A DNA stretch of 64,000 bases. Origin: Phanerochaete sordida (lineage: Eukaryota > Basidiomycota > Agaricomycetes > Polyporales > Phanerochaetaceae). Shown in pieces: positions 18,186 through 51,293 of the stretch. Numbering within the stretch: the first letter of the stretch is position 1; each line of letters starts with the position of its first letter. Where the stretch lies: the NCBI GenBank assembly GCA_019973155.2, contig BPQB01000046.1, positions 1 through 64,000 on the forward strand, read 5' to 3'. A model generated the notes under the pieces. The model was not told the DNA's origin. It was given only the letters and a program-made list of their open reading frames with translations, and made no database searches. Position numbers and translations under genes: made by a program.

Positions 18186-19621
18186 CTACCGCCCCTTGAG
18201 CCCGCTGAGGTCCCACGGCACGACGCGCGCCGTGATGCCCGTGACGCCGAGGACCCACATCCCGAAGTTGCGCACCCTGACCCAGTTCACGGGCACGACG
18301 CCCCAGTACCACACGAGCTCGTCCTTCCAGCTCGAGCGCGCGAGCATCGCCTTCGTCGTGCGGATGACCTTAAGCGCGCGCGCGTGGCGCGCCGCCGCCC
18401 AGTCCGCGAGCCCGCGGTCGAGCTGCGCGCGCGGCACACCCTGCGCGCCGCGCGCTGTCGCCGACGCGCGCACGTGCGCCGCGAGCACGGGCCCGAGGAA
18501 CGCCGCGTCGCGCAGGCCGAGGTTCATGCCCTGGCCGCCGGTGGGCGGGTGCCGGTGCGCGGCGTCGCCGACGAGGAGCAGCACGCCGCCGGCGCCGCGC
18601 AGGCGCGCGAAGGGCGTCGCGGCGGCGGCGCTCGCCATCACGAAGCGCGACGCCCAGAGCGTGTCGGTGATCGCGAGGCGCTGCGTGCTGCCGCGTGCGC
18701 GCGGGGGCAGCGCGCCGGGGCCGTACGCGTCGAGGAGGCCCTGGAGGTACGCGGTTGGGGGCGCGTGCGGCGGGGTCGCGCCGGCGGGCAGGCCTGCGGC
18801 GATGCGCCAGACGGTGCGGCCCGCGTAGGAGGACGCGGGGAGCGGGAGGCAGAGCGAGAAGGCGCCGCTGGCGAGGACCATGAGCGGCTCGGTCGGCGCG
18901 GAGGGCGCGTAGTTGAGCGTGACGTCGGCGACGACGCCGAGCGTGGCGTCTGCGATGTCGTCGCCGTCGGGGTCGAGGTAGGAGATGCCGGCGATGGAGC
19001 GGACCTGTGTGGGGTGAGTGTCTAGTAAGAGACGACATTGCTTGGGAAGACTTACGGTGGACTTGGTGCCGTCTGCGCCGACGATGTAGCGGGCCTGCAC
19101 GACCTGGCCGTCTTCGAAGATCGCGTTCGTCACGTCGGGGTCTTGCTCGTTGGGGACTAGGTCCACGACCTTGGCCGGGCGGACGACCCGGATCCCCTGT
19201 TCCTTCACGACATCACCGAGCACCCGCTCAGTGACGTGCTGGGGAACGAAGAGGATGAACGGGAACTTGGTGTAGCCCTCGAGAGCGCCGAAGTTGGCCC
19301 AGGGCTGGAAGCGGTAGCCGTCCCACATCCTGCCCTCGGTCGCCTTGACTCCTGCGTCAACGATGCGCTGAGCGGGAATAAATTCGTCTATGGCCTGGAT
19401 GGGGTCAGCTTGGGCAGGCGCGGCGCATCATACAAAGCACAAACCTCCAATGTAGCGGCGTGTACCGCTATCGCACGAGATGTATTGTCCCCTGCAGCAT
19501 GGGAGTCCACGACAAGGATGTCGGTGCATCCGTGCTTCTGGAGCGAGAGTGCAGTGGTCAGACCACAGGGTCCGGCGCCTACGATGAGGACGTCTGTTCG
19601 CGACGGTAGCTGAGTAGACAT
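18186..19621 (-). CDS. FAD-dependent aromatic-type monooxygenase (PHBH fold)
   Basis: A class A flavoprotein monooxygenase of the p-hydroxybenzoate hydroxylase fold, expected to hydroxylate an aromatic or polyketide substrate using NAD(P)H and O2. The ADP-binding motif VLIVGAGPCGLTTALSL begins at residue about 10. The central DG motif is YIVGADGTKSTV, and the ribityl-binding GD motif is LLLVGDAAHRHPPTGGQGMN. About 440 residues, two introns. It ends soon after the substrate domain (VPVNWVRVRNFGMW) and lacks the C-terminal thioredoxin-like domain of phenol hydroxylases. The substrate cannot be predicted. The 3' end is 113 bp from APC5 (convergent). No biosynthetic cluster partners lie nearby, so a housekeeping or detoxifying role is as likely as secondary metabolism. 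Confidence 0.9.
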
Positions 19622-28242: not shown

Positions 28243-31200
28243 TCAGCTGGGAGGCAGGCGCGTTTCCCGCCCGTGAGAGCTGGAACTTGCGCTGCTTGAT
28301 CTGTACTGGAAGAGGTCGTGTAGTCGTGACAGCTTCTCTTGTTGTGGCGGAGGGAGGTCGGATATGCTGGATCGCTGCGGCGACATCGGGGAGGTTGGGG
28401 TCTTGACCCTCGAGGGTTCGACACCTGTCCGATGTCAGCATATGCGCGGGTTGCCATACAGTGTGCACTCACTGGACGTGGTAGTAATGGGGGCCATCCG
28501 TTCGCGTGAATTTGACTCTAGTTCTTTGGGAGCCAGTCAGCCTTTGGACACGGCGCAGACGTTAGTGCAGACGTACTGGAAAGTGTGTGGGCAACGGCGA
28601 CGTTCCTCTCCTCGTCCTCGGCTGCCCGGCTCGCCAGCGCACGTGTAATGTACTTGCGGAACGCGGGGCCGGTCGAGTCCAACATCTTGTCAACCTTGCC
28701 CTTCTTGTGCGGATACGCCTTGAGGAAGTGGTGCAGCTCCGTGATGCCCTCCTTGTGCATTGCGCCTGTCGTCTCACTCGAGATGTGATTGATGATCTCG
28801 ACGAGCTGTTCATCCAGGTCCGGCTCCTGCGCAGGCAAAGAGGGGCTGCGGCCATGTCCGTTCATGGACGACATGCTCTGGCTGCGACCGTGGCTCGATG
28901 AGTGTCGTGACGAGATCGTGCCTTGCGGCGAAATGGGTCGGCTGATGGCTGGCGACTCTCGGCGGGATATTGGGTCGTGGTCTAAGGCAGAAGAGCGTAC
29001 TGGCACCTCCGCAGCTGTTCGTGTGCTCGAGTTCAGAATGCGGTAGACGTAGGGGTATACAATCGTTGCCGAAGGGTCGTCGAAGGAACCCGACAGCAGG
29101 TCGTAAACATCGTCGCCATGGTGCGCTGCGATACGTGTTAGGCCGATTCGTGACAGAGTCATTGCATAACTACTCACCGACAACGTGCTGGATTATCACC
29201 TTGATGGTTCTCAGAGGCATGTCGCCGCAGGGCACCTTGTTCGTCGCACGTGCTCGCCACTCGTTCGGAGGCACCGACTGCAGGAAGTGCTCGATGGCCG
29301 GGAACAGCTCGACCGGATCAAGCGCCGACTTCTCAAGGTCTTGCGGTATGTTCCGCGCAAGCTTCCAGATACACTTGAGGACGAGCTCGGCCACCTTAGC
29401 TTCTTGGGAGTCGGGAGACGTCCCGTTCGCGGGAAAGGGCTTGACGATCGACAGAAGGAGCTGGAACAGCGCACGGAAGACCGCCATCCTCCGCGCCGTG
29501 GCGAATATCCGCAAGATGATCATGTTGATGAAGCGCGACAGATCCTTGACCTTCGTGTCCGGACTATTGTCGGTTTGCAGGAGGCGAAGCGTCAGCTCTT
29601 CCAGCAGCGAGGTCAGGATGTCGCCCGTCAACGACTCGGCCAGGAAGACGTGATCGCAGAAGGCGTTGAGGGTCTGGATGAGATGCTTAGCCAGCCTGAA
29701 ATTCTCAGGTACAGCAACGTCATCCGGGCGCTCGAAGACATGCGCCATCTGTAGGGTAATTGTCTCGATGAGGCCTTCCGTGTGCTCGGCGAGTTCGCGG
29801 TAGGCAGGGGATGACGGGCCTTCGTCGGGCGAGATCTCCAGGACTTTCTGGATCTTCTTCAGAGCATCGACACTGCGGGCAGGGTCGTTACTGAGGATGC
29901 TCGAGATTGCCACGGTGATATCGTCAGAAGAGCCGGAACGAATGGGCTCGTCGAACTCAGAATGGCGAATGTCTCCGTTCCCGTTTGTATGTGGAGGCTG
30001 TTCAGCGAAAAGGTCGGGGTCCTCATGTTCCGGTTGAGACGCGAGTGCACTGTGGCTCGGAATATGCTGCAGATCATTTGGACGACTGCGCGGAGCACCG
30101 AGGCGGGAGGGAGGAAGACCTTTCGGTTTTCCGATACCGCTAGGGGATGCAGGACCCGGAAGGTGAGAAGACGCGGAGGGAATCTGTTTCGAGGTTCGCA
30201 TGGGCGTGGCAAGCTTGCTGGCAATAGATGGCGCTGGGGATGTTGCGCGCGCACCTCCGTATGCGGGCGAGACAGGACGGGCGAGGCGAGAAGAATGTGC
30301 AGTTGCGGGGCTTGCTGGCCGAGGAATGCCGCCGATGCGAGAAGCAATGCTGGGGGCAGGCGATGAGGATCGCTGTGCGAGAGTGGCAAGACGAGATACT
30401 GGAACAGCAGCGGCTGGCGCAGCTTCGGCTTTCTCCGGGGTGCTAGGACCTGCAACGCGGCGGAGTCGCTCTTCGAGCTGCGTCTTGTCCTTTGGCGATA
30501 ACGATCCGACGAGCTGCCATATCCTCTCACCGACCAACACATACCCCTCGCTGGAGAGGTGGTGAGAACATCACGCGGAATGAAATAGAGGGCGACGAAC
30601 CTGAGAGCAGCGAGTGCTGACTTTCGAACGTTGGGATCCTTGTCAGAGATCGCGGAAGCAATGACAGGGAAGGCTTTCGCAGGCTCGCAGGCGCCGATAC
30701 CAAACCGCTTGAGGATACCAGCCAGCTCGTCTAGTGTTCCTTGGCGTGTCTTCGCGATCTTGGACTTCAAGCCGTGTTCCAGCAGCAGAGAAAACACTCG
30801 GCTGAAAGCATACACTTTGGGAAGCGTCTGGATAACTTGCTGAACCCTCAGTCGCACGGGTTCTCGCGCGTCGCCAAGCTAGCATCCTCTGTAAGTACGA
30901 TTTCTTACTGCCGCTCAGTGGCTTAGGGCTCACCTTGTAGATCATAGTCGGGATGAAGCACAATGCCTCGCCATCCGATACCTGGTAGTCCATAGACTGG
31001 AAAAAGGCAAGCACGGACTCTACCACATCCAAGCACTTCTGCACCAAATTCGACTGCGGCTCATGCGCCTTCATGGAGACGTACTTGAGAGCCAGATCTG
31101 AGTTGGCGATGCAAACCGCCCTGACTTCGTCAATCGGTCCGAACCGCTCGTCGCTGGCCTCGGCTGCAGAGTAGAACTCGTACAGCATGTTCAGACCGAG

Positions 31201-34200
31201 GACGTGGTCGTTCACGGCGTTGTGATCCCGGCTAAAGAGTGCACTGACAAGTTCTTTCGAAGCATGAGGCTCCATCTGGTGCTGCAGTAGCTCGGCAAGG
31301 TCCTTGCGCGTCGGGCCGCTCTCGTTGATCCACCTCTGCGCATCCTTCGCCACGCGCGCCTTCTTCGCGTCGGGGTTGGCACCAAGAAGAGGCATCGACG
31401 AAGCCGCGGCCGGAGGAGGGCTCCTAGCAGCAGCAGGTGCCGCTCCAGGTCGCTTTAGGCCTGTAGCCAGCTTGCTTGGCAGTCGAGACGAAGCTGCGGG
31501 AGCAGCAGCCTCTGTGGGAGTCTCCGCGCGGGACTCTGGGCGAGGGATCGAACCTTGGGGAAGCTTCCGTCGAACGCCGGTGAGCTTGCTCACAGGTGCT
31601 GTCTTCGCAACGGCAGAGGGTGGGGGAGACGGTTCGGTTGGCGATGGCGATTCTGCTGGCGGAGGAGCGGCGACGGCTTTGGCGGCGGGCTTAGCAGCTG
31701 TCTTTGCCGCAGCTGGCGCCTTGGCAGGTGCAGGCGCAGCGGGAGCAGACCCACGGGCAGCCTGAATGAGCGGAACGGCGGTCGACTTTGATGCAGGCTT
31801 GAGCGAGTTGGTTTGGGCCATGACATAGTCAAACCCGGCAGATGCAATGAGGGTAGGAAGCAGTGCCTGAGCCGCCTTCCTGACATCTCCGTTACGGTCG
31901 TCGAGGGACGTGACGATAGGGCCCGCCCAGCCGGTGATGTCGAGACCAGATGCGGGAGGGTTCGCCTTGAACCAGTCGACGAGCCATCCCATCAGCGAGG
32001 AGCGCTGCAGAGGATTCGCACTTTCCAACGCCGTCGCGAGACCAGGGATCATCGGTTCCAGTGTTTCACATGCGTTGGCAATAGCTGTGAGAGTCTGCAG
32101 GGCCGATGCGCGGATGGGGGCTTTCTGATCAGCGAGAACGGTCGACACGGGCAGAACAAAGAAGCGACATTGCTTGTCGAAGGCCTTGCCCATGCCGGTA
32201 GCAATACGTGCGACGATATCGAGCGCAAGACTCTGCACGGCCTTGTTGCTGTCCGTTACCCGCGCCTTGAGTACTTGGCCGATCTCACCTGCGAACGTGG
32301 TTAGCATGGATGCTACGGTCCCTTCGGAGCCGCGGACATACCCATCGTAGGCTTTAGGCGCTTGTTGGCACCTTGGTCCAGTATCGCCTGCAGGGTCTCG
32401 AGTGCCTCCTTCTTCGACTTCCACGCATCACTCTTCGCATCGGCAAGAATAGTGGTGCCTTTCAGGAGACCGTCAATTTCCACGCGCGGGAAGAGGTCAT
32501 CCAAAGGATCGCCTCCTGCAGATGCCTTGCCGGCACCTGCAGTTGACGTAGCCGCCATGCTTGCTACATCGGCTGATGTCCGTACAGGCTCCGGTGCCGG
32601 GTTTCCTTCCACCTTGTCAAACTCAGCAGTGATCGTCTTCAGTAGCTGCGGGTTGAGATCCTCTACGAGATCCTTGACACCTGAAGAAATCACATGTGAC
32701 TAGTGCCCTTTCGGAAAGAATGCTCTAAATGAACTCACTAGGTCCCGCAAAGAGCTTTACGGTCACAAGGGCCTTCGTGGCGCTGGTACGTACAGCCGCG
32801 TTCGAGTTGGCGAGCGCGGTCTTGAGAAACTCTATCAACGCGCGTAGTGAAAGACCGGCGATCCCAAACTCTACGATTGCTTGGTCGATCCATGTTACAG
32901 CATCGGCCAAGACCTTGGGTGCCTTTTGCTTGGATAGAGGTTCGTACGCTGATTCAGATCGTCAGCTGAGGGCTGCGCAGAGGGCGGTAATGCACTGACC
33001 GTGTCCAAGGACAAACTGGAGGGACGTCTTTTCCGCGAAGAGCATCAGGGTTTCACCGGCGGGTTTCTTAAGCTTCATATCACCTAACTTCTCGGTGAGG
33101 TGTGGGATGCAGAGTGCCACCGACGATCTCCCGAAAGACGGACAGCGTTCCGCCAGGGCGTTCAGGATGCCGTACAACTTGGCAGACACCTGGGGGGCAA
33201 GATCGGGCCTTAGTCCGGAATGCGTTCTCAGGCGCGATGAAGACTTACCTGGAAGTTCTTCTCACCCCACCCTTTCTTCCCGAGGAATCTCACAACGACC
33301 TCAGAATCGAGGGAGTCGGCGGTGCTCTCTACCCAGCCGGTCATTTCCTCGAGGGTTGCGAGACGAGTCTTCCAGTTCGAGTCCCCGAGCCCCGCCGCGA
33401 AGTTTTCCGGGATCGTCTCTGCAGCGAGGGCGTCCGCATCTTCAGAAGTGTGCTTGTACTTGAACGTGTCTAATGACCCTGCAGCGGGCGGCGGAGCAGC
33501 TTTTCCTGATTTGGCAGCCGCAGCTGGAGGCACGACCTTCTTCACTGGGGGCGCTGCGGATACGGGCGCAGACGGGGCTGCTGGAGCTGCACCGTCTCCA
33601 GCGTCGGCGCCCGGGGCTTTCTTGGCCTGGAGAGCATTATTGACGCCGACTCATTGACATGCAGCTGAGTATATGCGTACCATAAATCTGGCGGGCGGCT
33701 TCTTCAGCGGCTTGTTCTCGATCGGCTTCAATAGGTCGTCGTCACCTCCGGCAGCGGCGGGCTCGGGCTTCTCTGCAGCAGGGGGCGCCGCGGATTTCGG
33801 AGGTGGTGCCTTCTTCTTCGGTGGCTCCTTCGCAGCAGGGGGAGCAGGCTTCGGCGCGGCGCCCGCCTTGCTCTTCACGGTAGCTTTCTCGTAAGCCTCC
33901 TTCACCTTCGCTTTGCGGACATCGGCGAGACTATCAATGAGAGCGTTGAGCGGTCGCTCGCCGACCATCTTCATCAGAGTACCAAGGCATGTGGCGGCCT
34001 CATTGCGAGCTCCTTCGAACGAGTCCTCGAGCAGCGGGGCCAACGCTTCAGACACCGGCTTGATCTGCGCTGGAGGCACAGGCGTCGTTGACGTCGCGAG
34101 ACAGCGCCCGAGGAACTTCAGTGTGCCTTCCTTGACCTGCGGGTTCTTCGAGCTTAGCGCTGGCAGAATGTCGGGGAGAATATCGGGCAACGAGGTCTGA

Positions 34201-40667: not shown

Positions 40668-41808
40668 CGGAAGAATCTGCATGATGGGCTGTCTGAAAGA
40701 TCTCGATAGAGTTCGCGATAACCTTCTTGAATTCTGTGCCCTGAGGCAGACCAGTTCACCCACGTGTGCGCGATTTGGCCGCCGTCTAGTGTGCGTCGGC
40801 TCGACTGATCTGCACGAGCGACACCAGCCACGCCCCCGAGGTCGGCTGTGGAAAATAGCTCATGAACCGCCCCACCGATTCGTGCCCGCAACACGCGGCC
40901 GACGACGAGCAGCGATTCGCCTTCGGTCGAGAAGGCACCTTGACGGTCTCCCTGGAGAGTGCCGTATGCCTGTTGATCGATAACATCGTAATCTCGCCGC
41001 GCGCGGACGCGAGGCTCCCGAGAACGACTCCGAAACCGTGAGCCTATCCCCATGCCTCGACGGAGCGGCCAACAACGCATTCCCTTTCGAGGCTATCGAC
41101 GAGGGCCAGGACGCGCTATCGTGACGCTCGATCGAGGAGCTTCACGGCCCTTGTGAAGTGACACACGGCGGCGGCGGGTGGCGGCACCGTTCGCAGACTG
41201 TTGAAGATCCGCAAATCACAAGCGCGTTCCTCCGCTGGAAAACCGTTCAGCCTAAAATTCGCGGATTCGGTGAGTTTTCAAAGCGCGAATTTGACGTCCG
41301 AGGCGTGCACGCTCGTTTCCCTTCGCGAGGAGGTTTCCGTACGCGCTCGGCCGCCATATGCGTCAGTTTCAGCCGCTTAGTGCGCATGTCCGACGCTGCG
41401 TCAGCCTTGGATTTAACGTTTTAGCTTTAAGATCTCGAAGTAAGCGTGATACGACGAAAGTGACCCAGACTGGAGGGTATAAGCCCCGATCATTTCTCGA
41501 TAACACCTTCTACGAGGACGCACAGACTTGCCCCTCCTCGTGTATGCAAAGACCATACTCCGACGCGCCCATCTTGATTTGCTGGAATAAGACATGAACG
41601 TTGCAACGGCCCGATGCGTGATGTTATCGAAAAGCGTTCCGGCTGGCAGACCAGTTTATGTCCCAGAATTTTATAGCGACCGACTCGTTTTGTCGAGCTG
41701 CTCTGAGACCCTATAAAAGCAAGCTGGCGACGGGCTCGGTCGTCAGCCGCACTTTCAGTCCTTCGCTTTCCTGTACATACCTTTCTTCCTTGTACATTTT
41801 TCTTCTTC
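40668..41808. other. gene-poor region upstream of the small Cys/His gene
   Basis: 1.14 kb with no gene that can be supported. A 59-codon frame from an ATG at 40862 ends at 41041 just where a GTGAGC donor-like site occurs, but no partner exon was recognised. A TATA box for the downstream gene lies at 41712. Confidence 0.5.
41712..41719 (+). promoter_or_regulatory. TATA box of small Cys/His gene 1
   Basis: TATAAAAG lies 97 bp before the ATG at 41809, followed by a pyrimidine-rich leader. The paralogue at 50.0 kb has a TATA box at almost the same distance. Confidence 0.7.
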
Positions 41809-42396
41809 ATGTGTCACTGGCGACGGTGAGGCGCTCCCGCCCATTGGCTCCGAGGACGCCACCATTGACTCTTCCCGACTTCTTCTTCCAGCGTCCGAAA
41901 CCACTACAAACGCTGCAATCACTATCTCGACCTCGTACGCGTCCCCCTCTCCACAGTTCGCAGCTTCGCCTGACACAGCTTCCCTGCAGCCCGACGACCT
42001 GGTGAGGCAGCCCCGTACCCGCGCCACCGACGCAGCAGCGCTCATCAGACCGGCTCTTGTTGCAGGTCCAATGTGATGACCGGTACTGCAAGTTCAGCAC
42101 CTGCCACCCGAGCAACTGCGTCCCGCCGCGCTGCACCGAGACATGCTGGCAGTAGTGCGTCCAGGCCCGCCCCTTCCTCTGCACGCCCCCGTCTGACGCG
42201 ATGTGCCCTGCAGTCGACAGTTCCCAGAGTCAATTAGTGAGGGCTCACCTAGACCGCCTCGGCGCGCGGGCCACATGCTGACGTCACGACAGGTCCCGTC
42301 ATAGACGACTACTGCCCGTCCTGCATCGCATCCGGCCGCCAGCCTACCGGCGCCGCTTCCAAGTATGCGAACGTCAAGTTCCCGCCGCCCCCGTAA
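41809..42396 (+). CDS. small Cys/His-rich protein 1 (MCH family, new)
   Basis: A 95-residue protein assembled by hand from six exons: 41809-41825, 41892-41934, 41990-42001 (12 nt), 42066-42154, 42214-42236 and 42293-42396. All introns are GT-AG, 55-66 nt, and the frame stays open to TAA. Cys/His positions: C2, H3, C14, H16, C27, C32, C37, H38, C42, C47, C51, C69, C72. Key segments are MCHWRRVRNHYKRCNH, QCDDRYC, KFSTCHPSNC, CTETCWQY and DDYCPSC. The tail (KYANVKFPPPP) is Pro-rich. No signal peptide, so it is probably intracellular and zinc-binding; this is inference. The gene at 50024-50394 encodes the same framework. The 12-nt exon is supported by restoring the H16-x10-C27 spacing found in that paralogue. 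Function unknown. Confidence 0.75.
41990..42001 (+). other. 12-nt microexon in small Cys/His gene 1
   Basis: Encodes Pro-Asp-Asp-Leu between introns 41935-41989 and 42002-42065. Skipping it would also keep the frame but would shorten the His16 to Cys27 spacing from 10 to 6 residues; the paralogue has 10. Confidence 0.6.
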
Positions 42397-44433
42397 CCTT
42401 CTTCCGTGTGGACTTTGTGCTTCCTCCCCGCCGCCCGTGTTCGTGCCTTGTACACTTGCTGACCCCTGTAGACACTATTGCGAGATGACCCGTGCCGTGT
42501 AACGTTATGTAGAACTCACCCTGTCGTCATATGTATCCGAGCCATCCTTTCGGTATAGTAGACTGTAATGTGATCGTCCTTCCTCAAACTCATGCTGCCT
42601 TGCCACGCCGACTGAATTGGCCGCACCCCTCGGTACGCGCGTGGCCAGCGACGATCTTCGCCCAGAAACTCGCCCGGTCGTCTCGCCCAGACCGCTACCC
42701 GGAGTGAGCCTGCACGGTTACAAAGCTTAAAACTCAGCGATGAGGCTCCGTGGTCGTCATCGGCAGTCGAGACCTGAAATTGAGAGCGATAGCAGGGTCG
42801 CGTTCGCGCGGGCGTGGTGGGTGACGGCGAGGGTGGGCTGTCGTCGTGCTCAGCGGTGGGAGAACCGGGTTGCGGCCGGGTAGATGTCAACGGTGATTAC
42901 AGCCTTCTAGCCCGAAGAAATATATTAATGGCGGCAGCACAGGCCTCGAGATAAGGCGCAGCGGGAGAGGCCATAGAAAGCGCGTGAGCACAGACACGTG
43001 CAGGGCCAGGGAGCCTGAAGAGTGGAGCGAGCCGCAGGCCGTCCTGATTCAAACCTTGTGCCAAGGGGGTTACGAGAAGGGGACGACCAGAGCGGTGTGG
43101 GAGAAGTCCACACCGACCGCGCAGCGGGTGACCGGGACGGAGAGAAGGCGTTCTTTGTTCTCTGGCCAGCACTGGACAGCGTTTCGACGGTCAGCTTCGC
43201 GTCTATCCGGAGATTCGCATAGCTATTTACCGAGACCCGTCGCGCCCAAGGATTGACAGCCACCGCTATATGACCATGCAGCAAGAGGATCCCCGCGTAA
43301 CGGCAGCAGGCGCAGGCGCAGGCGGCATCATTACCCGCGGAGTGCTGGATTCGGGAGCGACATTGCCTTGGTCTAGAGACGGGAGGCGAGGGGCGCAGGA
43401 GCGTTCCGGAAAAGATTTGATCTCCTGGATGGATCTGTAAGGCGATACCGAACGTACGGCCGCACCGTACCGCGATGTCGCCATACCGCGAAGCCGAGCA
43501 GCGACAACTGGCAGGAGGAATATCAGATGACTGGCAGATAAGAGAGTAGCTTTGCGGAGCTCACCAGCGCAGAGAATGGTCGTTCCGAAACACGCCTCGT
43601 TCGTACTGCTTCTCCAGTCATCAGATGATAATTGTGTGGAAGTAGAACGCCAAAAGCAGTACGGCCATCAGTAGTAAATGGATACATTGCAACTGGGTGC
43701 CCTGACCGGAGGAATGGTGGCGGAATGGCCCGCGATGAATATGAGGGACATTAAAGACGAGAAGCGCGACCGAGGCAGCTGGAGGTTGCCAGAAGCAACG
43801 CTCTAGGGGCAGCCCGACCGACCTGAAGGCCAAGGGGCATCGTGCGCGCGTCCCGAGCGTGACACGCCGCCGCGGCGCCCAGTTGGCTGGGACGGTCATG
43901 CCGGCTGTGCACTGGGGAGCGGACTCAAAATTTCCACGGCGAGGCAGCCGCTGTGGACACCGCACGCGATCGCCCACGCGCAGCTGGCGGCGTGCACAAG
44001 GTGAATAAATTTCTTGCGGGCTCGTGGAGTGCAACGAGGCGCGGCTGCTCTTTCAGGTGACAACATACGCTTGCGGGAACGGGAAAACATACGGACCAAG
44101 TAGGAAAGACGACGGCGATGACATCGATGTGCGCTACGCATCGGAAATAGGCTCGCGGGTGTGGTGGTTGCAGGGGGCGAAGCTGGAGCGGCGGGGAGGC
44201 TGGGTGCGATCTTGGATGCCTTGATTTGGGCATGCAGCGGAGGTGGGAGCGGACGTCGAGAGCAGCTGGGAGAAGCCTTACGTTACGACGTCGGCGGCCC
44301 CAGGACTGAATTGGCCCCGCGCCCCCGCATTTCGTGCCTTTCTTCCACGTGAATCAGCCGGCGATCGTCCCTTTCCGTGCACTCTCTCTTCTCCGCAGAC
44401 CACCATCTCGCTCCTCCCGCTCCGGCCAGAAAC
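42397..44433. other. gene-poor intergenic region
   Basis: 2.0 kb with no confidently identified gene. It holds a short ATG frame ending in a CaaX-like motif (43266-43484, minus) and a minus-strand stretch near 42520-42890 with protein-like composition but no ATG start. The right end should contain the POP4 promoter. Confidence 0.5.
43266..43484 (-). CDS. 72-aa ORF ending in a CaaX-like box (uncertain)
   Basis: True ATG to TAG frame without introns. It ends GSSCCMVI, so the last four residues Cys-Met-Val-Ile fit a prenylation CaaX box, preceded by another Cys. Upstream are an Ala/Pro-rich stretch (PPAPAPAAV) and a Glu-Arg pair (FPERSC). Mushroom pheromone precursors are short, end in CaaX and often have a Glu-Arg processing site, but no pheromone receptor gene lies in the window and the N-terminus does not look like a known precursor. 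It could equally be a chance frame. A plus-strand frame of 56 codons (43270-43440) overlaps it. Confidence 0.2.
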   Translation of the reverse strand: MATSRYGAAVRSVSPYRSIQEIKSFPERSCAPRLPSLDQGNVAPESSTPRVMMPPAPAPAAVTRGSSCCMVI

Positions 44434-45578
44434 ATGTACTACGCAGGGTGCGCTCTCACCGCGGTGTGTTTCGAGTACACGGCCGGCCTCATCAGCGTTC
44501 TCCAGGCGCAGTGCAGTGTCCACAGACATCTACACCGCTCCTCCACCCCTTAGCGTGAGCGCCGAGCTCCCCTCGCCTCCGTAAAACCCTGGCTGACCCG
44601 GAACGGAAAGCAACGTGTCAAGCTCAGCAGCGAGACCCCGTTTACCCCAGAGTATGTAAAGAGCAACCTCTCGCGTTCCATAGACGGCGCGCAGGTCTAC
44701 GCGAGCCGCGTCAAGGGCCGTCAAATCCTGCTCGACCAGCCTGTCCGCGAGAACAAGCTGAAAAAAGAGCGCGACGAGAAGAAGGCCAGGCGGGCTGCGA
44801 GCAGAAAAAGATCCGACGCGGATGTTATAGCCAACACCACCGCCCGGCGTAAGGGTCTGCACGCAGGCTCGCCGACAGAAAGAAGGTGTGCACCGCGCTC
44901 GCGTTCTCGCGCCCCGAGGAGCTGATAGGAACCCTGGTGCCCGCAACACCGGTAAGATTCGAGCTCTTCGTGGCCATGCACGACCTCTGGATGGGGTACG
45001 TGTCGGAGTTGCTCGACCTTCCGCCCGCCGAGTCCGGATCGACGAAGCATGCCCAGACGCAGGCAGCGGGCATGCACGCGAAGCTGATCAAGGCTGCCTT
45101 CGAAGGAGCGATGATCACAGGTACGGCGCGAGGCCTCTCAGCTGCCGTATGCTAACTATCTTTGTACGCCTCAGTCAAGCAGAGCAAGAACGCCTCGCTC
45201 GTGGGCCTGACCGGCATCGTCATCCTCGAGACCGAGAACGCGTTCAAAATCGTCACGCCCAAAGATCAGCTCAAGCGTACGTAGCACCTACGTATGCCTC
45301 GGCCTTGCTGACTTGCGTCACCAGTCATTCCGAAGAGGAACTCGGTCTTCGCATTTTCCGTCCCATTGTATCGAACACCCACCCCGGTCTCGAATCCTGC
45401 GGCCTCCACGCCTAGCCCAGTGCCAGTGGAACCTTGCATGACGTCGCAGGGCCCTACACCCCACACCGTTCTAGATCTCCCGCGGATAGAGCTGGAGCTA
45501 TACGGGAACCAGTTCTGTTTTCGCGCTGCAGATCGCGCGTCCCGAAAATTCAAGCACAAGGAAACCATCGAATTGTAA
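44434..45578 (+). CDS. POP4: RNase P/MRP protein subunit Pop4 (Rpp29)
   Basis: Binds the RNA of RNases P and MRP for tRNA 5' processing and pre-rRNA cleavage in nucleus and nucleolus. N-terminal FTPEYVKSNLSRS and a long basic helix (KLKKERDEKKARRAASRKR) precede the Rpp29 fold: RRFELFVAMHDLWMGYVSEL, AKLIKAAFEGAMITV, NASLVGLTGIVILETENAFK, IVTPKDQLKLIPKRNSVFAF and IELELYGNQFCFRAADRASR. The N-terminus was built from frame: ATG at 44434 (MYYAG), a 64-nt intron, then AVSTDIYTAPPPLS, then a 56-nt intron before QRVKLSSE. The join before RRFELF uses an intron GTGTGC...GGTAAG. The first exon is the least certain part. About 255 residues. Confidence 0.85.
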
Positions 45579-45818
45579 GACGTATACAGACTCTCGTCCG
45601 ACTGGACGATACCTCATGATGTGTGGCATACCCCATTACGCACACTCCTCATGTTGCAGATCGTGAGCGGCGCCACACCTCGGGTGATTGATATTTGTTC
45701 CGTAGGGTCATGCGGTCGGGTTTGACAGGAATCCGGGTAGCATTGCAATACAGAGCGACGATTACAGATACACAGCGATAGACAGCAAGCGTGAGGGAGG
45801 ACGTGGCTCGGCAGCTGA

Positions 45819-47245
45819 TTAGCTCTGGCCGAGTCGCTGCGGTGGCTCTTCCGGAGTATCAACTTCCCCGCGGATAGGTATCCAGCCTTTCCCAGCCGAC
45901 TTGGGCGATGTCGATGCTTCGTCCACGGTAGCGACGTCTGGGTGTTCGGCGGAAGGCGTGTCCACAGTTGCTGATTGTGATTGCGCCCTCGGAGCCCCTT
46001 GCGCCATCACAGTAAACGGCTGATAGAGCTTTCCTCGACGGGTAGTTGGTTCCGGCGGCGTGATCTACGGAGGGTCAGAACGTGTCTCGTCGAGCAAAGA
46101 TAACGCACTGACGGATGCGATGGGTGCAACCCATTCCACGGAGCTTCTCGTGTCTTGCGCCGCGTAAAACTCGAGAAGAATCGTCAAAGCCTCTGGGTAC
46201 TGCTTTCAGTCTCAGCGAAGATTAGGGCGCTCCGCATACATACCTGATAGCGACGCTAATTCCATTTCGTTGAACTTGAAGAAATTGACGGCGAAGCGCG
46301 TCGACTCAGGATATGCTGGCTTATGCGAGGGCGGGGTTGGGAGGGAGGCTGAAGGTGCGGGAGACGATATTCTGGCCGCTAGCGACAGGCCCACGGGCGT
46401 GTCCAGATACTGCTGAGCGAGAATGTAGCATGCCGCCGCGATGATTCGCGGGGGATATAGAACGCATAAAGGCGTGCGGTAGCTATAACAAGCTATGTTC
46501 ATGATACAGGACGTCATTGAAGAAGCACGGACTTACGAGTCGTTCGCAATCGACCATGCAAATTCCTCGAGCTGAGCGGCAGCCTCGGGCTGGGCGTCGA
46601 AGAGGTCCACCAGGTCTGAATGTGGAGTCGGGACGATAAAGTCAAAGCATAACGCTTCCAGCAGAACTTCTTCCGTCAATAGAATGGCCGCTTGGCTTTC
46701 GAGGACTTCCTGCACGCCTAGTTGAGTACGTTCCGTGTGCTTAAGCCCATGTGTCTCACCTTGCTATCATCTGGAATCTCATCCACGTTCTTCCTGCCGT
46801 AGACTTTAGCGCAATAGACCTTAGCGACGTCACGGAGTTTGCGGCCACACTCCTCGGTCTTTGTCGCTAGAAAGATGCACGCTGCTGCAACATCCTGCGT
46901 TGACACATGAAGGATCCCGGGAACGCGATGTAACGGTGCAGCGTACCTGTCTGTGGTAGTCCTCCATGGAGTAGCGCATGTAGAACCGGTGGAACCAGGT
47001 CGCCGCGGTGTACATGGCGGATGATGGCCTGTACTTTTCACGTAAAGGATATGGCGCGGGGTACGGGTGGGTTGGTAGAGGACGTACAAGACGAGGGTGA
47101 CCCCCAGGCGAAACAGGAACTCCACGCCTCGCGCGCGATCGTAAAGCTCCTTCTCAACGGAAATTGAAGACGTGGTGCGGCTCGGCGTTGCGTCCACGAT
47201 GGCTGAGACGGGGAAGAGCCACTGTGAGGTGCCCGTAGCGGCCAT
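45819..47245 (-). CDS. pch1: Pch1/cyclin T-K-like transcription cyclin
   Basis: Regulatory subunit expected to activate a Cdk9-type (P-TEFb/CTDK) kinase that phosphorylates the RNA polymerase II tail. The N-terminal TSQWLFPVSAI and KELYDRARGVEFLFRLGVTL precede the first cyclin fold (YTAATWFHRFYMRYSMEDYH, DVAAACIFLATKTEECGRKL). The second fold contains ILLTEEVLLEALCFDFIV, FAWSIANDSYRTPLC and IIAAACYILAQQYLD. The C-terminal tail (QSQSATVDTPSAEHP) is disordered. About 370 residues, about six introns; the intron after VTLVL uses GTACGT. Start is the ATG immediately before AATGTSQW. It converges on POP4 (240-bp gap). The match to fission yeast Pch1 is a family-level judgement; Ctk2 is the main alternative. 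Confidence 0.88.
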
Positions 47246-47687
47246 GGCGATCAGGAGGTCGCGTCCGACGATCGCGGCGGTCTGAACCTCGAGCTTAGCT
47301 TGAAGGCAAAAGGCTCGGAGCGGGGCGTGCGCTGCCAGGCGGTGGTGCCCGACTTGCCAGATGAGCGGGAGCGGGAGGCGGCAGGGGCTGGGAGATGAAC
47401 GATGCGATGAGGCAAGAGCAAACCGCGTCCGAGGTAAACTAGCCGCGAGGCGCCCATCGAGGACGAGCAGCGCGCGCTGCCGCAGAACGGCACGAGCGCA
47501 CCGGGGACCCTGGCCCTGCCCGCGTTCGTCCTGGCGCGGTACGGAGGCTCTACCATCGTGGAAAGCTGCGCACTCGGCGCACGGCATTATGTACATCGTA
47601 CGTCAAATATATGATACATCTCTGGGTCCGCCTCACGTCCTGACGTTATGCTGCAGATCTAAGCAGCACATGCGCACCGCCGTGCCC
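47246..47687. other. promoter region of the cyclin gene
   Basis: 442 bp between the start of the cyclin gene and the stop of the upstream orphan on the same strand. Minus-strand frames through it lack a conserved motif. No gene seen. Confidence 0.5.
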
Positions 47688-49610
47688 CTAGTAGGATGCC
47701 ATTCTCATCACGTTTTGCGAGAGCGGGGCCGTAACCCAATTCCCTGGGACCAACGGGTAGAGTTGCTCGAGGTCGTCGGAACGCATAGAGGTAGCGGCGG
47801 AAGATACCGTATGCGCTGAGAAGGCTGCTTCAGACATCGCGTCGCAAGGTCGAGGGAGATGTTCTTGCCATGCCAACACCCGCTCTGCGAGTGTCTGAGC
47901 CGGTACTGTGTCCGGTAGAGGTGGCGGCACTGCCTCTTCTTCAACACCGCTGGCCGAAATCGCCATGCCGAGTACCGTCGAGACCTCAGCCTCTTCTATC
48001 TCTTCATCGACGTCGTCGTCTACGTGGATAATCAGTGAATCGATGAATCGACGAAGCGCTGTCGCGATCGACTTACTGACGGACCAGTCTGACTCCGATC
48101 GAGGCGGCGGCGGGAAACGATCATGGGGGAATGGGGGAATTTCAAGGTCTCGCGAGACTTCCGACACCAACTCCACTACCTGCACGAGTTGTATCATCTG
48201 CAGGAACCCTCGTGCAACATAACCGCTCACCGTGGGTAATGTAAATCCGCCGGGCAGACCCATAGACGAAGCAGTCCAGTAGGCCAGCGTCTCTAAGACA
48301 TTGGGCTCGCGCTGGATGAATGACTTCGGTTCGGAGATGAAGCCTCTGGTACGACCTAGGCGAAACTAATAAGCACGCGCTCATGGCGAGGAGTTAGTGA
48401 CAAACCCGCTGAGAAAGCTCCGAAGACCCAAGTATTATATGATGTTATCACGAACCAGTGGCATTTTCGACGCGTGCAAAGATCCCATATCTGACCGCTC
48501 GTGAAGTGAGACAGATGTACACAACGAACAAAGGCAAGTGCAAACCTTGGCCCAGAGCCGTTCACATGCTGTCCATTGAGGATCGGGATCTTCAGGGAAC
48601 CGACGACGACGAAGCTGATAAACATTTTTTCTCAGTGCGCTCTCAGATTGAGGTCGAGAGCGTAAAACATACCTTGCGACATTTAGTCATGGCGACAAGG
48701 TCTGCTGGAGACAATACCCACGGCGGAAGTACCATGAGCACGAGTGTGGTATTCAGAATCTGACATTTGCGATTCCTGGCTTCCCATGCGTAGGATGCAA
48801 CGATCTCATCGTCCGGGTCGAAGGATGATTCACGGTGGAAGCCCCAGGGCCTGCTTTCCGGGAAGACAAGGTGTAGAAGCCTTTGGACCGTAGCAAGAGG
48901 GTACTCAGAAACCCAACGGCGCATACTGGATCGTATGATGCGTGAGCGAACTCTCAAACCGACCGATACGAGGGAGTACCTCTCGCAGTCCCCAACCTGG
49001 GTAAGGCGTACTGGCATGGTTTCATAGGTCTGGCAGGGAACCGAGAGCCATTCACCCGTGACGTAGTCCGGTTCAGACGTATTGCAAGGACTTGTGGGCA
49101 TGAAGGTTTTCGTGACTGCATCGCATGAAGGACGCGTCGTTTCTCAAGTCGTGGCAGAAGGGCTCAAAACGTCACGTACAGGATAGAACGTCCTCGTTAA
49201 GTTCCTCGGTATACAGGGGCTCCATATACTGCAGTACGCGCCATAGGGAGAACCCGACGGACAGATGGACGACATGGCTTCTGCGATCCGCTGGTGGTAG
49301 GTTGACGGCGAGAGGGTTCACGACCATCCCGGGTAACACAGCACGTCGGATGTAATCTCGCAGGTTATCTATCGGTCGAGTGCGGCCGACAAGATGAAGA
49401 ATTTTTGTGCTGCCGACGTTCAAGGCTCTCTTTTCTTCGCGGTAGCGACCTGCAGCGGGGTCAACGCCGCTGAACTGCATCCCGTGGGTGGCTGGCCGGC
49501 AGACCGAGTGTGAAGGTGTCGAACAGCGAGGGGGTAGAGAGGGTTATTGCAAGCTGCATCGTTGAGCTATATCGCTGCAGAGTACAAGGCAGGTCGACGA
49601 GGAAGGACAT
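47688..49610 (-). CDS. hypothetical protein, five-exon fungal orphan
   Basis: I do not recognise a named family. Assembled from five exons whose GT-AG borders all keep the frame: start MSFLVDLPCTLQRYSS; FDTFTLG joined to RYREEKRALNVGS; LHLVGRTRPIDNLRDYIRR; FTKTFMPTSPC; VGDCERYSLVSVGLRVRSRI; MTKCRK joined to IPILNGQHVNGSG; FALAFVRCVHLSHFTSGQIW; HWFVITSYNTWVFGAFSAG; then GFISEPKSFIQREPNVLETL and a Glu/Asp-rich region (HVDDDVDEEIEEAEVSTV). About 550 residues. The WFVITSYNTWVFG segment resembles strand-loop signatures seen in Agaricomycete proteins of unknown function. Start at 49610 because an in-frame stop lies a few codons above it. No catalytic motif was found. Confidence 0.75.
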
Positions 49611-50023
49611 GCCGGGAACAACGACTTCACCGTTGCCACCGAGGATGGACGCGGCGGTTGAACTCAAGGATTACCAGAAACGGCATACACACCGAGGCTT
49701 ATGTAATTAGCGCGCCCATGGCCGACCACGAGAAAGCAGCGAGGGAATGAATTCATGGGTAAGTACATAATTACATGGGTGACATGGTAGGTGCATAGTA
49801 CAGTAGTGTGGAACGCAAAGTCCAGGTGCAATATAGAATATAAGTTATTACCCGATACATAGCAAGTTGGACTCGTGTTCGACGGGAGGAAAGCGCCAGC
49901 GCTGCGCGGTACAAAGCAGAGATATCGGGTTACTGGACAATTAGGTTCAATGGTCGCCAGGAACTAGGTTATGAGGGGCCGGGACATATGCAGACCTGCA
50001 AAATGGGCATGATGTGGTCCAGC
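49611..50023. other. intergenic region between two minus-strand genes
   Basis: 413 bp. AT-richer than average near 49760-49860, which suits a 3' end region for the small Cys/His gene 2. No frame of interest. Confidence 0.5.
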
Positions 50024-50394
50024 TTAGACGAAGCCGACCATACCGCCGCTCTCGCGCTCGCGCATAAGGCAGTCTGCGCATTTCGTTTCGCTGATCCTGA
50101 TGGGATTCCGCTGCGGCACAGTCATCAGCCGCTGGCAGGACGCAGACTTGCAACCTAGATCGCCGCGGTGTTAGCAATCCAGCCAGCGGATTAACCGAAC
50201 GGCGCAGTGCGTACCTGTCGGGTGTGCGTGGCGCTGACTGAACAGGCAGTCAGGCCGCATGCAGTCCTGCATGCGAGTGGACATCGCGATGAAGTGGCCG
50301 CACACAGTGTGGTAGCGACCGTCTTGAATCTGTGGGACAGAGGGCTGAGCCAGCGGTCCACAGCATATTGCGCGAAACTTACGTTGTGGCACAT
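50024..50394 (-). CDS. small Cys/His-rich protein 2 (MCH family, new)
   Basis: An 85-residue protein built from three exons: 50383-50394 (12 nt, MCHN), 50215-50329 and 50024-50154. The first intron has a consensus donor (GTAAGT) and CACAG acceptor; the second is GTACGC...CTAG. Key segments are MCHNIQDGRYHTVCGH, QDCMRPDCLFSQRH, GCKSASCQR and TKCADC. Metal-ligand positions C2, H3, C14, H16, C27, C32, F34, S35 and H38 are identical to those of gene 1, and later pairs fall at C44/C49 and C68/C71 versus C42/C47 and C69/C72. The C-terminus (MRERESGGMVGFV) is unlike gene 1. No signal peptide. Probably zinc-binding; partner and role unknown. Single-exon readings of this locus hide the family resemblance. 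Confidence 0.75.
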
Positions 50395-51293
50395 ATTACC
50401 GAGGGTAGGAGTGGTAGGAATAGATATAGATATGGAAGTAGGGTAGGTATGGTACAGATGGTGGTTGGGACGAACTGAAGAGCAGGGCCGACCTGTTTAT
50501 ATAAGACCAGGAATGCGCATCAGGAGAAGGACGTGAGGCACACAGCGTTTGGGCAACAGCGATTGCATGTTGACCTCATTCAAGTCCAAAATTTCGGCGG
50601 ACCTAGGCAGCGCGGTGTGGGGCCCCTCGCTACACCCATACCGCATCCAGGGAAAGCCAACAAATCCGAGTAGCCTCGCGTGAAACCATGAATCTCCTTC
50701 CAGGCGATCGGTGGGTTCGGTGATGGGGCGGTAATGGGTGCGTCTGCCCGCCCCAAACTGGGCGAGTCGGGACGTTCTAAACTTGCCGTCTGGCCAAGAG
50801 AGGGCGCATGGGTTCGGAAAGGCAATGACCTGCCCGCCGCGATCACGAAGAGGGTAAAATGGTAACGGCCATTGTCCCTCTGAGGTATCGAAGCGCTTAG
50901 TTCGAGGGCGAAATATCAATCAAAATTCCCTCTGGCCCTCGCGCTGAGCGCACGAGGCAAGGGGCGTGGTGAGGGCGTGCACAGTCCGTAGCCGTTTGTG
51001 GTTGACATGTCTTGCGCGAAGCCGAGCGGGGACCTGCAAGCAAGCGACACACGGGGCATGATGAGCGTTTACAGGAGCTTAAAGGAAGACGTTACTGCAT
51101 GTTGTCCTCCGAATCTTACGGTCCCTCCGCTATGAAGCAGCAGGCCCTGGCTGCGAATGCATCTACTGCGATCTAGGCGTGCACAACAATGCGGGGTAGT
51201 CTCTTGGCGGACCTGTTACGGAACTCAGGCAAGACCAGCATGCGTGCGGAAGGAAGTAGATAGTGCAACAAGTGCCGTAAGGGAAGACTCTAC
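50395..51293. other. upstream region of small Cys/His gene 2
   Basis: 899 bp. It contains the TATA box of the small gene at 50496-50503. A 140-codon minus-strand frame (50497-50919) begins at TTG, not ATG, and overlaps the TATA box; it is not accepted as a gene. Confidence 0.5.
50496..50503 (-). promoter_or_regulatory. TATA box of small Cys/His gene 2
   Basis: Reads TATATAAA on the minus strand about 102 bp upstream of the ATG at 50394. The leader between them contains CT-rich direct runs and no earlier ATG. Confidence 0.7.

What the first reader, a model, noticed from the sequence alone, without database searches (positions are those of the whole stretch)
41809..50394. Two paralogous small Cys/His-rich genes define an apparently undescribed zinc-binding family
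Splicing by hand gives a 95-aa protein (41809-42396, +) and an 85-aa protein (50024-50394, -). Ligand-type residues coincide exactly through the first half: M1 C2 H3, C14-x-H16, C27-x4-C32, F34 S35, H38. The second halves keep a C-x4-C pair and a final C-x2-C. Outside these positions the sequences are very divergent, so the agreement is unlikely to be chance. Both start Met-Cys-His, both have a TATA box about 100 bp upstream, neither has a signal peptide, and the single-exon frames hide both genes. A cysteine framework kept while the rest drifts suggests zinc binding and fast evolution.
Basis: partly seen in the sequence, partly recalled or inferred. Interest (0 to 1): 0.85.

Follow-up and report, generated by a model that had tools for sequence, protein, structure and literature searches.

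The report
Undescribed mushroom-fungus zinc-finger-like protein family
Two tiny genes hidden by introns in a wood-decay fungus belong to an unnamed family of small proteins, found across mushroom-forming fungi, that keep a fixed set of cysteines and histidines expected to hold zinc.

Summary
Gene A (41809-42396, +) splices to 95 aa over six exons, one a 12-nt microexon; gene B (50394-50024, -) to 85 aa over three. Near-identical uninterrupted database proteins back both models. Their seven in-register Cys/His are not chance (0 of 200,000 shuffles).
They are not just a pair. Three searches returned 60 relatives; the 49 with an organism name are Agaricomycetes (7 names checked, the rest recalled).
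Framework: C2, C14-x-[H/D]16, C27-x4-C32-x2-S35-x2-H38, a later Cys, a final [C/H]-x2-C. Cys-to-His and His-to-Asp swaps there favour metal over disulphides. No shared Pfam or NCBIfam family and no convincing PDB sequence or fold match was found.
"Fast evolution" is not supported: relatives in other genera are mostly 57-83% identical; the paralogues are what drifted.
Best reading: cytosolic or nuclear structural-zinc modules acting as adaptors. Family: very likely real. Zinc: likely. Adaptor role: inferred.

The parts
41712..41718 (+). TATA box of gene A (TATAAAA), 97 bp upstream of the ATG
41809..41825 (+). gene A exon 1 (17 nt, ends in phase 2)
   Evidence: the same 17-nt first exon in 7 of 9 family members
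41892..41934 (+). gene A exon 2 (43 nt; holds C14-x-H16)
41990..42001 (+). gene A exon 3: 12-nt microexon encoding PDDL, frame-preserving (phase 0-0)
   Evidence: PDDL present in P0013; 12-nt counterparts in paralogues E and F
42066..42154 (+). gene A exon 4 (89 nt; C27, C32, S35, H38, C42, C47, C51)
42214..42236 (+). gene A exon 5 (23 nt)
42293..42396 (+). gene A exon 6 (104 nt with stop; final C69-x2-C72)
50497..50503 (-). TATA box of gene B (TATATAA), 109 bp upstream of the ATG
50383..50394 (-). gene B exon 1 (12 nt, phase 0)
50215..50329 (-). gene B exon 2 (115 nt; C14-x-H16, C27-x4-C32, S35, H38)
   Evidence: genome search match 50201-50332
50024..50154 (-). gene B exon 3 (131 nt with stop; C44-x4-C49, C68-x2-C71)
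   Evidence: genome search match 50027-50173

Best explanation
Genes A and B are two members of one Agaricomycete family of small (about 72-95 aa), leaderless Cys/His proteins. Shown: both spliced frames, homology, at least nine members in this genome, and a fixed framework M-C2-x11 (longer in few)-C14-x-[H/D]16-x10 or x12-C27-x4-C32-x2-S-x2-H38-...-C-...-[C/H]-x2-C. Predicted: an N-terminal beta-hairpin with C14-x-H16 at its turn, a long Cys/His loop, a strand, and a helix that starts just after the first Cys of the last C-x2-C. Inferred: about ten ligands hold two structural zinc ions that pin an otherwise loop-rich protein. The subtype-specific stretches (for example CWQYRQFPEQY in A's type, PQRNPIRISETKC in B's type) then form the surface that binds a partner, most likely a protein, less likely RNA or DNA. 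The paralogues would be parallel adaptors under TATA promoters. The 12-nt microexon in A's type sets the length of the H16-C27 loop.
For: Splice models. My models of D, G and H match GenBank proteins PsYK624_042290, _128050 and _091820 letter for letter and were made before those were seen (against 37, 40). Uninterrupted relatives: P0013 and P0001, near-identical to A and B, and P0032 and P0033, close to C and E. Cross-detection of subtypes against 20,000 decoys and of member J. Exons 17/43/12/89/23 nt in A and E, the same with one extra intron in F and one fewer in D. Framework columns not used for choosing the 54 rows (50 distinct): C47 54 of 54, C69 48 Cys + 4 His, C72 53. His at C69 (H = P0034, P0049, P0052) and Asp at H16 (J) fit metal ligands. 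Two AlphaFold models agree on hairpin, strand and last helix (mean pLDDT 76 and 81). No hydrophobic N-terminus in A or B. TATAWA 60-160 bp upstream in 6 of 8 members (J untested) against 1.2% of random 100-bp stretches of the window.
Against: No metal measurement and no model coordinates, so ligand grouping is unknown; ten candidate ligands do not divide simply into two four-ligand sites. pTM is only 0.53-0.54. No partner, phenotype or expression data: the adaptor role is the default for small structural-zinc proteins, not shown. Cross-detection is uneven: the B-type profile finds 7 of 15 A-type sequences, the subtype IV profile 0 of 15 A-type and 2 of 8 B-type, and the IV profile misses J (262 of 20,000 decoys score higher). 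B and J lack the 17-nt first exon.
Confidence: 0.6

Rival explanations
1. Metallothionein-like metal buffers: the Cys/His bind surplus zinc, copper or cadmium rather than holding a fold.
For: Small, Cys/His-rich, multigene; TATA promoters, which are often those of inducible genes (recalled). A metal-response-like word, TGCRCNC, occurs 1-5 times in the 500 bp upstream of 7 of 8 members, but no background was computed.
Against: Only 7-10 Cys in 75-95 aa for the nine own-genome members; non-Cys segments are conserved among relatives; predicted hairpin and helix.
Confidence: 0.12
2. Sequence-specific nucleic-acid-binding zinc proteins (small transcription or RNA regulators).
For: pI 8.1-8.7 for 6 of 9 members; no leader sequence in A or B.
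Against: F, G and H have pI 6.2-7.6; no zinc-finger family matches A or B or more than 2 of 47 relatives.
Confidence: 0.2
3. Disulphide-rich small secreted proteins or effectors released by an unconventional route.
For: Small Cys-rich fungal proteins without known domains are often secreted (recalled).
Against: No hydrophobic leader; His replaces Cys and Asp replaces His at framework sites; named hosts of the family include wood decayers and, from recall, mycorrhizal fungi such as Suillus and Tricholoma.
Confidence: 0.05
4. Chance: two unrelated hand-spliced reading frames that happen to share a Cys/His pattern.
For: Free choice of introns makes many frames: 29,702 gene A models of at least 60 aa with up to four introns.
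Against: 0 of 200,000 shuffles; close full-length relatives of both in other species; decoy-controlled cross-detection.
Confidence: 0.01

Closest known systems
Unnamed 'hypothetical protein' records of Agaricomycetes (e.g. P0014 Panus rudis K474DRAFT_1584993; P0002 Cytidiella melzeri BC835DRAFT_1406069; P0029 PsYK624_042290)
   Same: Relatives of A, B and D: same framework, similar length and start.
   Different: No family name, domain or function assigned; three gene models (P0014, P0015, P0018) lack or change the microexon residues.
Treble-clef and RING/PHD-like structural zinc fingers (recalled)
   Same: Several spaced Cys/His ligands; a last C-x2-C at the start of a helix in the predicted models.
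   Different: No Pfam family matched more than 2 of 47 relatives; no usable fold match; C14-x-H16 sits at a hairpin near the N-terminus.
CHY zinc finger (PF05495, recalled)
   Same: A C-x-H-Y string occurs in A.
   Different: The residue after H16 varies, and the CHY profile was not among the 21 families listed for 47 relatives.
Microexons of Phanerochaete chrysosporium P450 genes (PMC1184071, passages read) and Trichoderma Xlr2 (PMC11121469, passages read)
   Same: Very short exons in filamentous fungi; the P450 paper reports exons of 2-10 aa.
   Different: Here a 12-nt exon recurs at one site of a Cys/His family; no switch in its use has been shown.

Membership tests
This Agaricomycete Cys/His family | MC start, C14-x-[H/D], C-x4-C-x2-S-x2-H in order | tested here: met
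   A, B and the seven other own-genome members; 54 of 69 sequences examined. By my reading the 15 misses are partial, read-through or mis-spliced records
This Agaricomycete Cys/His family | Later conserved Cys and final [C/H]-x2-C (columns not used for selection) | tested here: met
   Of 54 rows (50 distinct): C47 54; C69 48 Cys + 4 His; C72 53
This Agaricomycete Cys/His family | Profile similarity above composition-matched decoys | tested here: met
   33 of 60 database proteins plus A and B, in four subtypes: profile I finds III 8 of 8, II 9 of 9, IV 2 of 3; II finds I 12 of 15, III 8 of 8; III finds I 7 of 15, II 9 of 9. Profile IV finds I 0 of 15. J exceeds all 20,000 shuffles with I, II, III and the joint profile, not with IV
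This Agaricomycete Cys/His family | 17-nt first exon ending in phase 2 | tested here: inconclusive
   7 of 9 own-genome members (A, C-H); B has 12 nt phase 0 and J has 173 nt
Structural zinc protein | Bound zinc through the Cys/His | not testable with these tools
   Ligand swaps are suggestive only
Known Pfam zinc-finger family | Family profile match shared by members | tested here: not met
   0 families for B and the 87-aa first model of A at E<=1; 0 for C and J at E<=0.01; among 47 relatives no family matched more than 2
Known solved fold | Structural match to a PDB chain | tested here: inconclusive
Secreted small Cys-rich protein | N-terminal signal peptide | tested here: not met
   Highest 11-residue hydropathy in the first 35 aa is 0.11 (A) and 1.08 (B), no leader-like stretch; no dedicated predictor was on hand and the paralogues were not scanned
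Metallothionein | Very high Cys content, little other conservation (recalled) | tested here: not met
   10 Cys in 95 aa and 8 in 85 aa; conserved non-Cys segments

The most novel reading that the evidence does not exclude
A class-wide family of two-zinc adaptor proteins with a fold not yet solved, nine or more paralogues in one genome, in which a conserved 12-nt, frame-preserving microexon lets splicing lengthen or shorten the loop between two zinc ligands, so that one gene yields two metal-site geometries and two partner specificities.
Probability: 0.15. Interest if true: 0.75.

Novelty: new variant of a known kind. Interest (0 to 1): 0.5.

Why it matters
A small, conserved, multi-member protein family present across mushroom-forming fungi has no name, domain entry or function that I could find, and its exons (17, 12 and 23 nt) are of a size that gene finders easily miss; three relatives retrieved appear to have gene models damaged at the microexon. 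A profile of the family would let annotators recover it, and zinc binding and knock-out are directly testable in cultivable fungi.

Tried and rejected
My first model of gene A (87 aa: no microexon and a different last acceptor) was the query; P0013 and the aligned relatives showed the 95-aa model to be right. A first model of F with a wrong exon 2 was replaced after the GenBank protein P0030 was seen; the wrong one stands in alignments A3 and A4, and A4 was the query.

Candidate places not counted as members after reading their frames: L010, L015, L029, L053 and L043 (E 0.198), which has C-x-H but a stop inside and no second Cys of the C-x4-C pair, so it is either a decayed copy or chance. A six-frame profile scan of the window found no third member inside it: best other stretch E 0.14 (lists cut at 3000 characters each). 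Very short exons could escape it.

A shared upstream word was sought in 8 promoters: one 8-mer (with its reverse complement) was common to four; stress and metal words vary in number and the heat-shock pattern used was absent (no background computed for these).

Literature: searches listed no paper on the family (10 of 28 papers listed; one hit was an unrelated match of a sequence word). sought microexons and the genome (15 of 1,781 and 15 of 46 listed). Seen as listings only, except passages of PMC10949477, PMC1184071 and PMC11121469. Most subscription papers are not held.
Full report
THE OBSERVATION. Both hand-spliced genes give good reading frames. Gene A has six exons: 41809-41825, 41892-41934, 41990-42001, 42066-42154, 42214-42236, 42293-42396; five GT..AG introns of 55-66 nt; 95 aa. 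Gene B has exons 50394-50383, 50329-50215 and 50154-50024 and 85 aa.

INDEPENDENT SUPPORT FOR SPLICING. Database protein P0013 is 95 aa and differs from A at two residues by my reading, microexon included; P0001 is 84 aa and 98-99% identical to B. Other records read straight through introns (P0009, P0010, P0011, P0059), so an uninterrupted P0013 or P0001 most likely comes from spliced RNA. That is an inference: the source label 'lgn' is not explained by the tool. P0032 and P0033, close relatives of paralogues C and E, are likewise uninterrupted.

NOT CHANCE. A and B share seven Cys/His in register within residues 1-40; shuffling B residues 2-40 gave at most six in 200,000 trials, also when the best of eleven offsets was taken. 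I then sorted 33 of the 60 database proteins plus A and B into four subtypes (I: A, D, E, F; II: C, G; III: B; IV: H). The subtype I profile scored 8 of 8 subtype III sequences above the best of 20,000 composition-matched decoys, and 9 of 9 of II and 2 of 3 of IV. The III profile scored 7 of 15 of I above its best decoy, and 9 of 9 of II. The IV profile scored 0 of 15 of I and 2 of 8 of III. So the link between A and B stands, mostly through subtype II, while subtype IV is tied firmly to II only.

THE FAMILY IN THIS GENOME. The window lies in a 40.8-Mb assembly. Four retrieved proteins named PsYK624 (Phanerochaete sordida) sit on contigs of exactly the lengths of C1, C8, C29 and C61, so the genome is P. 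sordida YK-624. Genome searches with single proteins gave seven further members: C (C42, near 50.8-51.1 kb, L004), D (C8, near 547.3-547.8 kb, L007), E (C30, near 240.2-240.7 kb, L008), F (C1, near 803.4-803.9 kb, L018), G (C61, near 182.6-183.0 kb, L013), H (C29, near 402.7-403.1 kb, L033) and J (C46, near 103.1-103.4 kb, L048, on the window's own contig). The count is a lower bound. Query C finds B at E 0.0016 and query E, with one residue mistyped, at 0.0083, so intermediates bridge A and B. J exceeds all 20,000 of its own shuffles with profiles I, II, III and the joint one, not with IV. My models of D, G and H equal GenBank proteins that I saw only later; F was corrected to its GenBank model.

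GENE ARCHITECTURE. The first exon is 17 nt, ending in phase 2, in A, C, D, E, F, G and H (7 of 9); B has 12 nt and J 173 nt. Exons run 17/43/12/89/23 nt in A and E; F splits the 43 into 18+25; D has 101 in place of 12+89. Among 29 subtype I rows (27 distinct), 26 carry a [PAS][DE]xx segment at the microexon site; P0014, P0015 and P0018 do not, and look like gene-model errors there, or skipped forms (my count on the printed alignment). TATAWA lies 60-160 bp upstream of the ATG in 6 of 8 members (not in G and H; J not tested), against 1.2% of random 100-bp stretches of the window; promoters of other genes were not used as control.

DISTRIBUTION. Three protein searches gave 12, 16 and 32 relatives, 60 in all, four of them this genome's own D, F, G and H. 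The 49 that carry an organism name are all Agaricomycetes; seven names were checked in the taxonomy (Polyporales, Agaricales, Amylocorticiales, Boletales), the rest is recall. In Sparassis latifolia and in Panus rudis an A-type and a B-type protein sit on contigs of equal length (776,917 and 710,607), and the Sparassis record numbers are three apart (814916, 814919): the A-B linkage may be old. No other fungal genome was on hand to test this.

FRAMEWORK AND METAL. In 54 rows (50 distinct) chosen for the first half of the pattern, columns not used for choosing are as firm: C47 54; C69 48 Cys and 4 His; C72 53; by contrast C42 38 and H3 only 20. Subtype IV has His in place of C69, and J has Asp in place of H16. 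Such swaps are usual among metal ligands and not among disulphides (recalled). With no leader in A or B the proteins should be in the reducing cytosol or nucleus. This is the case for zinc; it is not a measurement.

FOLD. AlphaFold gave mean pLDDT 76 (P0013, 47 of the 60 relatives aligned) and 81 (P0001, 34 aligned), pTM 0.53 and 0.54. Both show a hairpin with C14-x-H16 at its turn (strands 3-11 and 16-19 in A's relative, 2-11 and 16-25 in B's), a long loop with the middle ligands, a strand (59-61 and 57-64), and a helix beginning within the final C-x2-C (70-74 and 69-78). A's model has two further short helices (46-49, 81-86) that B's lacks. The tool gives no coordinates, so ligand clusters could not be checked. 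No PDB match stands out. This does not show that the fold is new.

EVOLUTION. Named relatives of B in seven other genera are 69-83% identical to it (unnamed P0009-P0012 are garbled and left out) and relatives of A mostly 57-81% (against the 87-aa model; garbled P0027 37%); A and B are 24% identical. The family diversified before these genera parted and its branches are now conserved. The search method favours conserved relatives, so faster-evolving members may be missed.

SURROUNDINGS. Between A and B lie an RNase P/MRP subunit p29 gene (about 44.6-45.6 kb, +, Pfam E 8e-27) and a cyclin gene (about 45.8-47.1 kb, -, Pfam E 4e-9), both read from hand-joined exons, and further minus-strand frames up to 49.5 kb that were not identified (191 aa at 47688-48263: no Pfam match). 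Nothing there hints at function.

VERDICT. A genuine family of small Cys/His proteins, apparently undescribed and much wider than the pair reported. Zinc is likely, the adaptor role is a guess guided by size, conservation and paralogy, and the microexon is an added feature worth testing. Interest is moderate, since function is unknown and unnamed fungal families are common.

Noticed in passing
L048 (G000:C46, about 103.06-103.43 kb, minus strand): A ninth family member (J) on the window's own contig with Asp at the H16 site and without the short first exon.
   Followed up: yes
window 41990-42001; paralogues E (L008) and F (L018): A 12-nt frame-preserving microexon recurs at one site; records P0014, P0015 and P0018 lack or change the matching residues, so some public gene models of this family look damaged.
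   Followed up: partly
window genes A and B; paralogues C, E, J: The searches returned PsYK624 records for D, F, G and H only; A, B, C, E and J may be missing from the public annotation, or were not shown by the tool.
   Followed up: no
L043 (G000:C86, about 127.5 kb, plus strand): A weak family-like stretch (E 0.198) with C-x-H, a stop inside and one framework Cys missing: a decayed copy or chance.
   Followed up: partly
window 44600-45580, +: RNase P/MRP subunit p29 gene (PF01868, E 8e-27).
   Followed up: partly
window about 45800-47100, -: Cyclin gene (PF00134 E 4e-9), split by short introns.
   Followed up: partly
window 18186-19328, -: FAD-binding monooxygenase-type frame (PF01494, E 1.2e-22).
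   Followed up: no
window 3145-4893, +: Man1-Src1p-C-terminal domain frame, an inner nuclear membrane protein type (PF09402, E 1.8e-31).
   Followed up: no
window 30643-32424, -: CLASP/TOG-like frame, a microtubule-associated protein type (PF12348, E 3.1e-7).
   Followed up: no
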